Shown: positions 6,962 through 55,229 of the stretch, piece by piece | How the letters are laid out: each line of letters opens with the position of its first letter | How positions within the stretch are numbered: position 1 is the stretch's first letter | Assembly: GCF_949987515.2 (NCBI RefSeq) | Contig: NW_027192651.1 | Coordinates: forward strand, 2,294,001 to 2,358,000 | Reading direction: 5' to 3' | DNA from: Delphinus delphis | Lineage: Eukaryota > Chordata > Mammalia > Artiodactyla > Delphinidae | Length of the DNA stretch: 64,000 nucleotides | Notes under the pieces: generated by a model | Database searches by the model: none | Seen by the model: only the letters and a program-made list of their open reading frames with translations | What the model was told of the DNA's origin: nothing | Translations under genes and position numbers: made by a program

Positions 6962-6973
6962 AAGATATCAGTA
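6962..6973 (+). repeat. Left target-site duplication of retrocopy R1
   Basis: AAGATATCAGTA immediately before the insert. It is the L1 3' UTR sequence of the monomer, which continues uninterrupted in empty units as AAGATATCAGTAATACACGG. Confidence 0.95.
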
Positions 6974-7460
6974 GGGTGGAGGTCGGGGCTGCGTAGTGGG
7001 AGGCGGACTGTTGAGGGGCGCGGAAGAGCTGCAGGTGCGGCCCAGCGGCCGATTCCGCGGGCCCGCCGAGCCAGGAGGTACTGAGCCGCCGCCGCCGCCG
7101 CCGCCGCCCTCGGCCCGGCCTGCAGCGGGGTATGGGGGCGGTGCGGCCCCTCGGCCCCCTCCCCCTCTCTCCCTCCTCTCCACCCCTCCCCTTCCCGTGG
7201 TCCCGGGCTCCCGGACCCTCCCCCAGGGCCGCATTCTCCTCTCCCCGTCTTCCTGTCCTCTTCCGCTGTCCTCTCGTTCCCCACCCCCAAGCATAAACAC
7301 CCCTCCGCGTCCCAGGCGTCTCCCGTCGCCCCTCCCCCCTCCCCGGGGGTCCGCCCTCCAGCGTTCCGGGGGTTCCCGAGGTCTCTCCAGCGGCAGCTTT
7401 CTGTAAGCGCGGTCCCGAAGATGGGAGGCGCGGTGAGTGCTGGTGAAGACAACGACGAGC
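6974..7460 (+). promoter_or_regulatory. CpG-island-like 5' UTR of PCMTD2 retrocopy R1
   Basis: Very GC-rich with many intact CpGs, a pyrimidine-rich CCCCTCCCC-type tract at about 7146-7205, and a (CCG)n run at about 7087-7108. It is the 5' UTR and start of the coding region of the parental mRNA, and such sequence can retain promoter activity downstream of the original start site. The surrounding satellite is much more AT-rich, so each retrocopy places an isolated CpG-dense patch in the array. Equivalent patches begin at 12481, 17990, 29818, 38481 and 48724. Promoter function is inferred, not shown. Confidence 0.5.
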
Positions 7461-8182
7461 TGATAGACCATCTGAAGGCGGCGCAGTACATCCGCTCCGA
7501 GCTGGTGGAGCAGGCCTTCCGAGCTGTTGACCGCGCCGACTATTACCTCGAGGAGTTTAAGGAGAACGCGTACAAGGACCTGGCATGGAAACACGGGAAC
7601 ATCCACCTCTCTGCTCCGTGCATCTATTTGGAGGTGATGGAGGCCCTGGACCTGCAGCCTGGCCTTTCCTTCCTGAACCTGGGCAGCGGCACCGGCTACC
7701 TCAGCTCCATGGTGGGGCTCATCCTCGGTCCTTTTGGTGTGAACCACGGGGTGGAACTCCATTCAGATGTGACAGAGTATGCGAAGCAGAAGCTGGACTT
7801 TTTCATCAGGACGAGTGACAGCTTCGACAAGTTTGACTTCTGCGAGCCCTCCTTCGTCACCAGCAATTGCCTGGAGATCTCTCCAGGCTGCTCTCAGTAT
7901 GACCGGGTGTACTGCGGGGCAGGCGTGCAGAAGCAGCACGAGGGGTACATGAAGAGCCTCCTCAAAGTCGGGGGCGTCCTGGTCATGCCGCTGGAAGAGA
8001 AGTTGACTAAGATAACTCGGACGGGTCCTTCCGCCTGGGAAACCAAAAAGATTCTGGCTGTGTCTTTTGCTCCACTCGTCCAGCCCTGCCAGTCGGAGTC
8101 AGGAGAATCACGACTTGTCCACACCCCTGGCGGTTCGCAGCCTCCAGGACCTGGCGCGCATTGCCATCCGGGGCACCATTAA
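7421..8182 (+). CDS. PCMTD2: Open methyltransferase-domain ORF of retrocopy R1 (C-terminally truncated PCMTD2)
   Basis: 253 codons from the parental ATG ([10 protein letters not shown]). Residues 1-233 follow PCMTD2, whose human protein is about 361 residues. The isoaspartyl-methyltransferase-like fold is covered, including the S-adenosylmethionine-binding motif [12 protein letters not shown] at 85-96. MGG at the start is the N-myristoylation-type terminus of this family. After RLV (231-233) the frame shifts, and a 20-residue unrelated tail, [20 protein letters not shown], ends at TAA. The lost part holds the Elongin/Cullin-binding box, so any product would be a methyltransferase-like domain without an E3-ligase link. 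PCMTD proteins are not known as efficient repair enzymes; PCMTD1 binds the cofactor and Cullin-RING components. No evidence of expression is visible. Confidence 0.45.
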
Positions 8183-51700: not shown

Positions 51701-52643
51701 AGAACACTGCGTGCACACATAGCTGGGAAAGCGGGTATATTGCCCTAAATGGGTACCGTTAAGCTGTTGTAAAGAAGGGTTTCTTCATAGTCGTGTTTAC
51801 CTGCCTTTAACTGAACGTCAAGCCTCATTGTCTCAGAGAGAAAAGCATGAGTCACGTTTACTTGCTAAGACTTCGGTTTGCAGATCTTGTTGACGTCATT
51901 CTAATTGATTTGTAGAGACCTCTGCAACACGTGGACGTTTTTGGACATGATATCTGAAATATTTTATATTAGGTGGCTTGACTAAATGTTTTTCTGTAAT
52001 TGTATATGGATTTCCTTTTTTTTCAACCACATTTGCCTTTATGCTAGATTGTAGAAAGTCTTTGCGAGGCATAAGACATGTTTTCCCCTATGTATGTTAA
52101 ACCTTTCCTAACATTTTGTATTTACATGTTGGTTTGTGACTTTTAAACCAGAATTTGGTTACAAGATATATATATATAGATATTGAATATAATATATGTG
52201 AAATAATTTGGTATTGATCTATCTAATAAACATAAAGGAGAATCATCAGTGAGTTTCCCTGTGTGTCAGCACCTTTCTCCGGAGTCAGTCTGAGACACTA
52301 CTTTCTGTTTTCAGACAGATGACTTATATATATAGTCTGTGTTGTCTGCAAGCTCTGTATTGTAAACCACATTCTAGACAATGGCTGACTTTTGTGTTTC
52401 GATTAGTCTGTATTTTTATATGTGACTTTCGTCTTGCAAGTAGTGCAGCCATAGACATGTGCAAAACAAGCAACAAATGTATAATATTAAGCACATAAGA
52501 CAGAAGCCAGCTGCGTATTTAAAAGTATTTTTGCCCATCTGGAACTTTCAGGGGATTAAGGCGAGAAATATGAAACAAAGGTTTTGATGAACTGATACAC
52601 AAGCGATACCAATAAAGGTAGTTACGGCAAAAAAAAAAAAAAA
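48724..52643 (+). pseudogene. PCMTD2: PCMTD2 processed retrocopy R6
   Basis: Target duplications at 48712-48723 and 52644-52655; 17 A. C-terminal frameshifted part about 49871-50251. Has P217 like R4 and R5 but keeps G110 and AAAAGATTAATTT. It shares GGGTGGAGG at the insert start and GAAATCTATGTCATC in the left flank with R1. Private CCCTCTCCCAGGG in the 5' UTR. Confidence 0.94.
49171..49932 (+). CDS. PCMTD2: Truncated PCMTD2 methyltransferase ORF of R6
   Basis: 253 codons, differing from the R1 product only at A217P. Same frameshift, tail and stop. Placed between R1 and the R4/R5 pair by its variants. Confidence 0.42.
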
Positions 52644-55229
52644 AAGATATCAGTAATACACGGAATGTAAACTTGGCTACACAGGAACTGAATTACAGAA
52701 CAGAACAGGGTCTCAAATTTAGAAAACCAACTTATGCTTGCTTAAGGGGAAAGGTGAGTTGGGGTGCTGCATAAAACCAGATTGAAATGAGCACAGATAA
52801 AGTTCCTTAAGCCAAATATGGAATAGACAAGAGCTACTCCTTGCTCAACGAAATGGACTCAACACCGCATATTAAACGCCTAAGAATGTACCTGACTAGT
52901 AAGTATCTTAAAACCTATGGATTGCTATGTCTCCGAAAGAGAATCAAGCATGTGTACAGGGGCATAAACGCAGCAGTGATAGGATTGGAGATGTTCGGTG
53001 AGCAAATGAAGACCCTTTGAAGTCATATTGCATGGTACCCATTCCACGGGTTTCAACTACCCAGGTTTAAGGTATTCTTCCTTCAGCTAAAACATGCATG
53101 TGGAACCTAGAGTATGATCAACCATGTGATCGGGAGACGTGTTCAAATATGTCTCAGTTTTCGTACCCTGGTACTCGGGTGCAACATTCCAGACGCTTTA
53201 CTAACACTCTCCCGACTTGGAGAGTCAGTCCCTTTAACCTCCTGTTTGGCCCAGTTTGCAATTTCTGCAGAAGATGAACAGGAATAGCGAGAACCAATGA
53301 GAGACTAGCTGGAGGTGTCTGGACGGGCAAATTTAACTCTCATTTCCCACCAGGAAGAGGAAGTAAGCAAAGGCTCAGCGTGCCATGCCGGAACCAGATT
53401 AGGGCCTGAAGCCATCCTGCGGTGTTGCGGCCAGGTCACAAGAAAGCGAGTTGAAGAAAGGAGCTCAGGGGCACTGTAATTCACAAACCTGCAGAGTTAT
53501 AAATGACAGCTATCGTCCAAAAATAGACTGAAGTAAGGCTGCCAAGAGGACTTGAAAGCGGGGCAGAATTGCAGGAAACCGATTTCAGGAGGTAGACTGG
53601 AATTGCATTGAAAGCATAGGAAAAGAGGCAGAACGTCCACAATGATGCACTTGGCCAAAAAGGGCGTATGCGTTTTTTCCTGAATATATTCAGGAAAAAA
53701 CGCATACGCCCTTTTTGGCCAACCAAGCAAGCTTGCAAAGGAAATCTGCACTACAAAGAAGTCTCACTTCCCCCCGCTCAAAAGGGCCATCTGAAAAAAG
53801 TGTAAAATCCAGAAAGGCAGGACAGGCCATGGAGAACTGGGAGCCTTGTTATGCTGATGGGCGGGATGTAAATTGCCAACAACCACTCGGGAGAAGTGTA
53901 TGGTGTTTCCTGAAACATCTAAAAAACAAAGCAACAGAACCTAGGGCACTTCCACTTATGGTCCTATAGATTAGGGAAATTAAAATCAAAAAGACACAGC
54001 CACCCCAAAGTTTGGAACGGCTCTGTTTACAAGAACCTCGTTTACAGTACAAGTTCAACATCGCAGAAAGTGAAAAATGGATAAAGAAGTTGTGGTATTT
54101 ACTTACAAAGCAATATCACTCAGCAATGAAATCTGTGTCATCAGGCCCTTAGCAGCACAATGAGTGGATTCAGGTATGATGATTCTAACTGAAGTAAGTC
54201 ACACAGAAAAAGAAACATCATAAGATATCAGTAATACACGGAATGTAAACTTGGCTACACAGGAACTGCATTCCAAAACAGAACAGGGTCTCAAATTTAG
54301 AAAACAAACTTATGCTTGCTTAAAGGTAAAGGTGAGTTGGGGTGCTGCATAAAACCAGAGATTGAAATGAGCACAGATAAAGTTCCTTAAGCCAAATATG
54401 GAATAGACAAGAGCTACTCCTTGCTCAACGAAATGGACTCAACACTCCATATTAAACGCCTAAGAATGTACCTGACTAGTAAGTATCTTAAAACCTATGG
54501 ATTGCTATGTCTCCGAAAGAGAATCAAGCATGTGTACAGGGGCATAAACGCAGCAGTGATAGGATTGGAGAGGTTCGGTGAGCAAATGAAGACCCTTTGA
54601 AGTCATATTGCATGGTATCCATTCCACGGGTTTCAACTACCCAGGTTTAAGGTATTCTTCCTTCAGCTAAAACATGCATGTGGAACCTAGAGTATGATCA
54701 ACCATGTGATCGGGAGACGTGTTTAAATATGTCTCAGTTTTCCTCCCCTGGTACTCGGGTGCAACATTCCAGACGCTTTACTAACACTCTCCCCACTTGG
54801 AGAGTCAGTCCCTTTAACCTCCTGTTTGGCCCAGTTTGCAATTTCTGCGGAAGATGAACAGGAATAGCGAGAACCAATGAGAGGCTAGCTGGAGGTGTCT
54901 GGACGGGCAAATTTAACTCTCATTTCCCACCAGGAAGAGGAATTAACCAAGGCTCAGCATGCCGGGCCGGAACCAGATTAGGGCCTGAAGCCATCCTGCG
55001 GTGTTGCGGCCAGGTCACAAGAAAGCGAGTTGAAGAAAGGAACTCAGGGGCACTGTAATTCACAAACCTGCAGAGTTATAAATGACAGCTATCGTCCAAA
55101 AATAGACTGAAGTAAGGCTGCGAAGAGGACTTGAAAGCGGGGCAGAATTGCAGGACACCGATTTCAAGAGGTAGACTGGAATTGCATTGAAAGCATAGGA
55201 AAAGAGGCAGAACGTCCACAATGATGCAC

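What the first reader, a model, noticed from the sequence alone, without database searches (positions are those of the whole stretch)
6962..52655. One PCMTD2 retroposition event multiplied to six copies inside a macrosatellite
All six inserts sit at the same base of the monomer, share the 12-bp duplication AAGATATCAGTA, the same frameshift and the same flanking private variants. Six independent insertions are therefore excluded. A satellite has carried along a 3.9-kb processed gene copy and expanded it, forming a new gene-containing macrosatellite. I know of no description of this PCMTD2 array.
Basis: partly seen in the sequence, partly recalled or inferred. Interest (0 to 1): 0.75.

Follow-up and report, generated by a model that had tools for sequence, protein, structure and literature searches.

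The report
Gene copy multiplied inside satellite DNA
A reverse-transcribed copy of the gene PCMTD2 seems to have landed once in a whale-type satellite repeat and was then carried along as the satellite multiplied, giving about 200 copies in this genome assembly; the copies look silent, but they are a natural tag for how satellite DNA spreads.

Summary
The six inserts are real: 3.92-kb, intronless, poly(A)-tailed PCMTD2 copies at one base of a 1,579-bp monomer, between identical 12-bp duplications, 99.85-99.95% identical to copy 1. One retroposition event is supported, but "six" is far too few: the own genome holds 199 exact 5' junctions, control 0. Of 100 listed 3'UTR matches (208 in all), 95 pair with that junction, 4 were read and start at the same place, 1 is the parent gene. 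Listed copies lie on four chromosome-scale contigs and 33 smaller ones.

The shared "frameshift" is not a mutation: the source mRNA used a splice donor 5 nt upstream, and vaquita isoform X3 has the same tail. The "macrosatellite" is most likely the long-known common cetacean satellite.

Flank haplotypes, shared locally and mixed at two distant copies, fit unequal crossing-over plus exchange between arrays. Coding changes fit no selection (20 nonsynonymous, 22.0 expected); 26 of 36 are CpG transitions, as in methylated DNA. Close precedents: HERV-K111/K222 in human pericentromeres, DUX4 in D4Z4.

The parts
6962..10902 (+). PCMTD2 retrocopy 1: 5' duplication 6962-6973, insert 6974-10890 (A12), 3' duplication 10891-10902; reading frame 7421-8182 (253 aa)
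12469..16411 (+). PCMTD2 retrocopy 2: insert 12481-16399 (A14) between duplications 12469-12480 and 16400-16411; frame 12928-13689
17978..21922 (+). PCMTD2 retrocopy 3: insert 17990-21910 (A16) between duplications 17978-17989 and 21911-21922; frame 18437-19198
29806..33745 (+). PCMTD2 retrocopy 4: insert 29818-33733 (A11) between duplications 29806-29817 and 33734-33745; frame 30265-31026
38469..42408 (+). PCMTD2 retrocopy 5: insert 38481-42396 (A11) between duplications 38469-38480 and 42397-42408; frame 38928-39689
48712..52655 (+). PCMTD2 retrocopy 6: insert 48724-52643 (A15) between duplications 48712-48723 and 52644-52655; frame 49171-49932
1..64000 (+). Array of 1,577-1,580-bp satellite monomers (25 full, two cut by the window ends) that fills the window apart from the inserts; it continues on both sides
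26648..35310 (+). Higher-order unit of about 8.66 kb: monomers 26648 and 28227, insert 4, monomer 33734
   Evidence: monomers 26648/35311/45554 differ at 2-4 columns, 28227/36890/47133 at 3-6, the third ones (33734/42397/52644) at 7-14
35311..43974 (+). Second copy of the 8.66-kb unit: monomers 35311 and 36890, insert 5, monomer 42397
45554..54221 (+). Third copy of the 8.66-kb unit: monomers 45554 and 47133, insert 6, monomer 52644; one extra monomer (43975) lies before it
6962..17977 (+). Two 5.5-kb tandem units, each insert + one monomer (monomers 10891 and 16400 differ at 1 column)

Best explanation
A mature, capped and polyadenylated PCMTD2 mRNA of the short splice form was reverse-transcribed and inserted once, by the L1 machinery, into one unit of a 1,579-bp satellite in a toothed-whale lineage. 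The satellite's ordinary turnover then copied the loaded unit: unequal crossing-over made local tandem units (5.5, 7.1, 8.66 kb and so on, mostly insert + a whole number of monomers), larger blocks carrying whole clusters were duplicated along the contig, and exchange between arrays on different chromosomes spread it to about 200 sites. The copies are passengers, most likely methylated and silent. Shown: structure, one insertion site in every copy seen, copy number in the assembly, parent gene, splice origin, mixed flank haplotypes, neutral pattern of change. Inferred: L1 as the enzyme source, crossing-over and exchange as the routes, methylation, species group and age. The stated confidence is for one insertion plus copying at the DNA level within the satellite; the exact route is less sure (see the rival on circles). 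It was lowered from 0.93 after a recheck showed that the four-gamete result is weak.
For: Intronless copies against a parent with five introns; poly(A) where the parent has CTTTAGCC after the cleavage site; first base G where the parent has C, as a cap-derived G would give. Same 12-bp duplication at both ends of the 12 copies read over their whole length. Same place in 99 of 99 non-parental listed 3'UTR matches, 95 by pairing and 4 by reading. 199 exact junctions, control 0. All 22 copies whose coding part was read carry the alternative-donor junction and four fixed changes; 15 substitutions separate the parent from all 12 full copies. Between listed neighbours within 60 kb, 31 of 35 distances are the insert plus a whole number of monomers to within 0.01 unit. 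In the window the left flank is shared for about 360 bp and the right flank for about 750 bp or more by all six, then similarity ends at differing points. The C8 copy shares 9 of 9 right-flank marker columns but 2 of 8 left ones; the C1 copy shares 5 of 8 left and 3 of 9 right.
Against: Only 100 of 199 junctions and 100 of 208 3'UTR matches were listed, and only 12 copies were read in full, so a rare second event is not excluded. Four of 35 spacings are not whole monomer numbers (10,275 and 13,636 on C24, 52,092 on C25, 8,696 on C94). The four-gamete test (21 of 190 site pairs fail) is weak evidence for exchange: 20 of the 21 conflicts involve site 128, 778 or 1142, of which 778 and 1142 are CpG sites where the same change can recur. 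Many copies lie on small contigs that could include haplotype duplicates, so 199 is an assembly count, not a per-haploid number. The host species was not established, and the share of loaded units among all satellite units is unknown.
Confidence: 0.91

Rival explanations
1. Several independent retropositions into the same satellite site (a hot spot for the L1 endonuclease).
For: The nick site that the duplication implies is near the L1 consensus (TCTT/AT read, against a recalled TTTT/AA), and the satellite offers many nearly equal targets.
Against: The copies read share the 5' start, the short splice form and the duplication length, and 12 of 12 full copies share 15 substitutions against the parent; the six in the window share private flank variants absent from 15 other monomers.
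Confidence: 0.02
2. The inserts are kept and multiplied because they do something: a short PCMTD2-like methyltransferase (253 aa, without SOCS box) or a CpG-rich promoter that drives satellite transcription.
For: 19 of 22 copies read keep the 253-aa frame; the first 400 bases are 76% G+C with a CpG ratio of 0.75; a first count on 11 copies had few nonsynonymous changes (9 to 13).
Against: With 22 copies, fixed changes set apart and change classes weighted, 20 nonsynonymous changes stand against 22.0 expected without selection, p = 0.30. CpG transitions are 26 of 36 polymorphic coding changes and 38 of 75 over the insert, as expected of methylated DNA. Three of 22 copies have stops. The family is young, so intact frames need no selection.
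Confidence: 0.06
3. Assembly artefact: a few retrocopies repeated by the assembler or by unmerged haplotypes.
For: Satellite contigs are hard to assemble; three clusters on one contig have nearly the same spacing; most listed contigs are small.
Against: Copies differ by substitutions and tail length; the same junction lies on four chromosome-scale contigs, and the two of them read with flanks, C1 and C8, have different flank haplotypes.
Confidence: 0.04
4. Same single insertion, but spread mainly through extrachromosomal circles re-entering arrays rather than through crossing-over between arrays.
For: Whole-unit steps (31 of 35) and dispersal to many contigs fit circles of whole monomers too.
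Against: Nothing specific was seen for it; repeats of whole clusters along C27 fit unequal exchange at least as well.
Confidence: 0.15

Closest known systems
HERV-K111 / K222 in human pericentromeres (PMC4425911; abstract and Background section read)
   Same: One germline insertion into a centromeric repeat (K111 in CER:D22Z3), copied to hundreds of proviruses on at least 15 chromosomes, by recombination between arrays as its authors propose; K222/K111 recombinants carry mixed flanks.
   Different: The passenger there is a retroviral provirus; here it is a processed copy of a host mRNA, in a 1.58-kb satellite.
DUX4 in the D4Z4 macrosatellite (PMC12376486; passages read)
   Same: A retroposed gene inside a tandem repeat with CpG-rich sequence, normally repressed.
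   Different: Each D4Z4 unit carries the gene and the arrays sit at 4q35 and 10q26; here a minority of units carry it, on many contigs, and no function is indicated.
Segmentally duplicated retrocopies: LCORL in equids (PMC10249811; passages read), SEPTIN14P-CICP in apes (PMC13015009; abstract read)
   Same: One retrocopy multiplied at the DNA level.
   Different: Carried by segmental duplications (expressed in the LCORL case), not by turnover of a satellite.
Common cetacean satellite (Widegren et al. 1985, 1,579 bp in killer whale; Kapitonov et al. 1998, L1 as a basic unit; titles only, in reference lists of PMC7763226 and PMC4107277)
   Same: Repeat length 1,577-1,580 bp and a 263-bp L1-derived stretch.
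   Different: No gene insert is mentioned in the titles and passages seen; the papers themselves were not read and the published sequence was not compared.

Membership tests
Processed (L1-mediated) retrocopy | No introns, while the parent has them | tested here: met
   Five introns of the parent, GT-AG, absent from the insert
Processed (L1-mediated) retrocopy | Untemplated poly(A) tail | tested here: met
   A11-A16 at the 3' end in the six window copies; the parent continues CTTTAGCC there
Processed (L1-mediated) retrocopy | Target-site duplication of about 7-20 bp (range recalled) | tested here: met
   12 bp at both ends in the 12 copies read in full
Processed (L1-mediated) retrocopy | L1 endonuclease target TTTT/AA (recalled) | tested here: inconclusive
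   Sequence at the site gives TCTT/AT, four of six bases (read)
Common cetacean satellite | Repeat length near 1,579 bp | tested here: met
   25 full monomers of 1,577-1,580 bp
Common cetacean satellite | L1-derived segment | tested here: met
Common cetacean satellite | Cetacean host, present on many chromosomes | tested here: inconclusive
   Monomer on many contigs; host PCMTD2, spliced as X3, differs from vaquita isoform X3 at 2 of 253 residues; species not named
Common cetacean satellite | Sequence match to the published repeat | not testable with these tools
   No nucleotide record of it was at hand
Gene-bearing macrosatellite (D4Z4 type) | Gene in essentially every unit of a locus-specific array | tested here: not met
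   Six inserts beside 25 full plain monomers in the window, beside 145 in 264 kb; junctions on 37 contigs among the 100 listed
K111-like satellite hitch-hiking | One insertion site, many chromosomes, recombinant flanks | tested here: met
   99 of 99 listed non-parental copies at one place; four chromosome-scale contigs; mixed flanks in the two distant copies read with flanks
K111-like satellite hitch-hiking | Passenger is a provirus | tested here: not met
   Passenger is PCMTD2 cDNA

The most novel reading that the evidence does not exclude
A host gene's cDNA, with its CpG-rich 5' part, has become a widespread component of a cetacean heterochromatic satellite within a few million years, and some of the roughly 200 nearly intact copies are transcribed in germline or embryo, giving a short PCMTD2 protein or satellite-spanning RNA.
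Probability: 0.08. Interest if true: 0.85.

Novelty: new variant of a known kind. Interest (0 to 1): 0.6.

Why it matters
Satellite arrays are thought to be kept alike by unequal exchange within and between chromosomes, but equal monomers leave little trace of single events. Here a datable, unmistakable tag entered one monomer and can be followed through local units, cluster-sized blocks and other chromosomes. That makes the rate and range of satellite exchange in a mammal directly measurable, and shows that a protein-coding cDNA can ride along as K111 did. It also warns annotators: if the 19 intact frames of 22 read are typical, many of the roughly 200 copies could be called as PCMTD2-like genes.

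Tried and rejected
Independent insertions at a hot spot: rejected (shared 5' end, splice form, fixed substitutions). Frameshift as a shared mutation: rejected, it is a splice choice. Selection on the 253-aa frame: a first count on 11 copies (9 nonsynonymous to 13 synonymous, the latter with four fixed ones; expected ratio 2.5) hinted at constraint; with 22 copies, a CpG-aware expectation and the four fixed changes left out it disappears (20 to 16, expected 22.0, p = 0.30). Four-gamete conflicts as proof of exchange between copies: not kept, 20 of 21 involve three sites, two of them CpG. The ratio of insert-bearing to empty units genome-wide was wanted; the search for the empty-site pattern did not complete. 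The breakpoints of shared flanks lie downstream of a 72-bp palindrome, but many variable sites lie there too, so no causal link is claimed. Papers: ten searches, three with PCMTD2 as a term; none of the 16, 10 and 15 papers listed by those three holds the word, but the lists are capped (17, 520 and 7,737 papers fitted the terms) and only open-licence papers are held. Passages of PMC5615363, PMC12628747 and PMC10919930 were also read and say nothing of such an insert.
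Full report
What is there. The window lies in a 4.87-Mb contig (C27) of a 2.66-Gb genome. Apart from the inserts it is an array of satellite monomers of 1,577-1,580 bp, 25 of them full, 96-98% identical to one reference monomer. Six inserts of 3,916-3,921 bp interrupt it, each between two copies of AAGATATCAGTA, always after monomer base 1579. They are 99.85-99.95% identical to copy 1 and differ in poly(A) length, 11-16. In the 264 kb around and including the window these are the only inserts. Some 31-41 kb upstream of the window, at roughly C27:2253264-2263064, the array is broken by other DNA and by monomer pieces of only 72-85% identity.

What the insert is. Pfam finds PCMT in the first frame and a SOCS box in the second; the closest proteins are mammalian PCMTD2, first that of the vaquita. 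A 3'UTR pattern found 208 matches in the genome; the one at C15:32277 has no listed junction near it and proved to be the parent: six exons with GT-AG introns, 32-55 kb from the end of an 88-Mb contig, with a canonical 361-aa frame that differs from cattle at 17 of 361 positions. The insert has none of the five introns, has A where the parent continues CTTTAGCC, and starts inside exon 1 with a G where the parent has C, as a cap-derived G would give.

The frameshift. The parent's fifth exon reads ...GACTTGTCCA-GTTAC-GTGAGT. Splicing at GTGAGT gives the canonical frame; splicing at the GT five bases upstream gives exactly the insert's junction and a 253-aa protein. Phocoena sinus isoform X3 has the same 253-aa form with the same tail, and a Cebus isoform has a similar tail. 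The shared frame change is thus a property of the source mRNA, and it marks all 22 copies whose coding part was read.

How many, where. The exact junction occurs 125 times forward and 74 times reverse, control 0. The 100 places listed lie on 37 contigs, in one direction per contig, among them C1, C6, C8 and C12 of 185, 117, 111 and 90 Mb. C6, C8 and C12 carry it 0.5-1.6 Mb from a contig end; C1 carries it in the interior. Of the 100 listed 3'UTR matches 95 pair with an exact junction, one is the parent, and the other four were read: insert base 1 follows monomer base 1579 after a 12-base spacer, the length of the duplication. One listed junction without a listed 3'UTR match, on C35, was also read and is full length; four more on C94-C96 lie beyond the end of the 3'UTR list. 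No copy at another site was seen; the other half of the matches was not listed.

How it spread. Between listed neighbours closer than 60 kb, 31 of 35 distances equal the insert plus a whole number of monomers to within 0.01 unit; four do not. In the window, monomer distances show 5.5-kb units (insert + one monomer; 10891 and 16400 differ at one column) and three 8.66-kb units. On C27 two further clusters repeat the order of spacings (5.5, 5.5, 11.8, 8.66 kb), so cluster-sized blocks seem to have been duplicated too. The left flank is shared by all six for about 360 bp and the right flank for about 750 bp or more, with private variants absent from 15 other monomers, and the shared stretches end at different points. 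Of the six distant copies read in full, two were read with long flanks: C8 shares 9 of 9 right-flank marker columns and 2 of 8 left ones, C1 5 of 8 left and 3 of 9 right. This fits repeated unequal crossing-over, and conversion or exchange between arrays. Within the inserts, 21 of 190 informative site pairs fail the four-gamete test, but 20 of these involve site 128, 778 or 1142, two of them CpG, so repeated mutation may explain them.

Age. The 12 full copies differ from the parent at 22-36 positions of 3.9 kb (mean 27.4, 0.70%); 15 differences are shared by all 12, and the six window copies differ from each other at 2-9 (mean 5.5). With an assumed rate of 0.5-2 x 10^-9 per base and year (recalled, not measured here) insertion falls at roughly 2-7 million years ago and the window's local expansion at roughly 0.35-1.4 million. 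Fast CpG decay in the copies would make these figures too high. Copies C1, C6, C12 and C25 keep the parental state at several positions where the window copies and C8 are derived, so the window's group is a younger branch.

Function. Of 22 copies, 19 keep the 253-aa frame; C1 and C8 have R231* and C40 has R34*. Leaving out four fixed changes, 20 nonsynonymous and 16 synonymous changes were seen; the expectation without selection, weighted by change class, is 22.0 nonsynonymous (p = 0.30). CpG transitions are 26 of these 36, although only 94 of 2,277 possible single changes are of that class, and 38 of 75 over the whole insert against 2 of 15 among the fixed differences. I read this as germline methylation of the copies and conclude that they are silent passengers; no expression or methylation data were available.

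What it is like. The insertion site lies in that L1-derived part. Host PCMTD2, spliced as X3, differs from vaquita at 2 of 253 residues. I take the host to be a toothed whale, species unknown, and the repeat to be the common cetacean satellite; no published sequence could be compared. The nearest mechanism on record is HERV-K111/K222, an insertion in a centromeric repeat spread to many chromosomes by recombination. DUX4 in D4Z4 is a retrogene in a macrosatellite, and LCORL and CICP are retrocopies multiplied by segmental duplication. A processed host mRNA riding in a classical satellite to about 200 sites combines these; I found no account of it in the lists of ten searches of open papers, three of which had PCMTD2 as a term.

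Noticed in passing
monomer bases 1009-1080, e.g. window 3231-3302: A perfect 72-bp palindrome (arms of 36, no spacer) in the monomer; 17 exact copies in the window, 97-100% identity in the units aligned. It could form a cruciform or hairpin; role unknown.
   Followed up: partly
about C27:2253264-2263064, 31-41 kb upstream of the window (L012 and the end of L013): The array is interrupted by other DNA with old L1 pieces and by monomer pieces of only 72-85% identity, as if an old array edge. By eye the DNA also holds a decayed retroviral-like stretch (not tested).
   Followed up: partly
C27:448839-489034, 1092218-1129251 and 2300962-2342732: Three clusters on one contig repeat nearly the same series of insert spacings, a higher level of duplication of about 40 kb.
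   Followed up: partly
parent PCMTD2, C15 near 37.3 kb (L034): Two splice donors 5 nt apart at the end of exon 5; use of the upstream one drops the SOCS box. The short form is also annotated in vaquita and, with a similar tail, in Cebus, so it may be an old regulated choice.
   Followed up: partly
surrounding 264 kb of C27: Other near-identical monomer pairs (0-2 differences, 1-3 units apart, e.g. C27:2200897 and 2205636) show that local duplication also goes on where there is no insert.
   Followed up: partly
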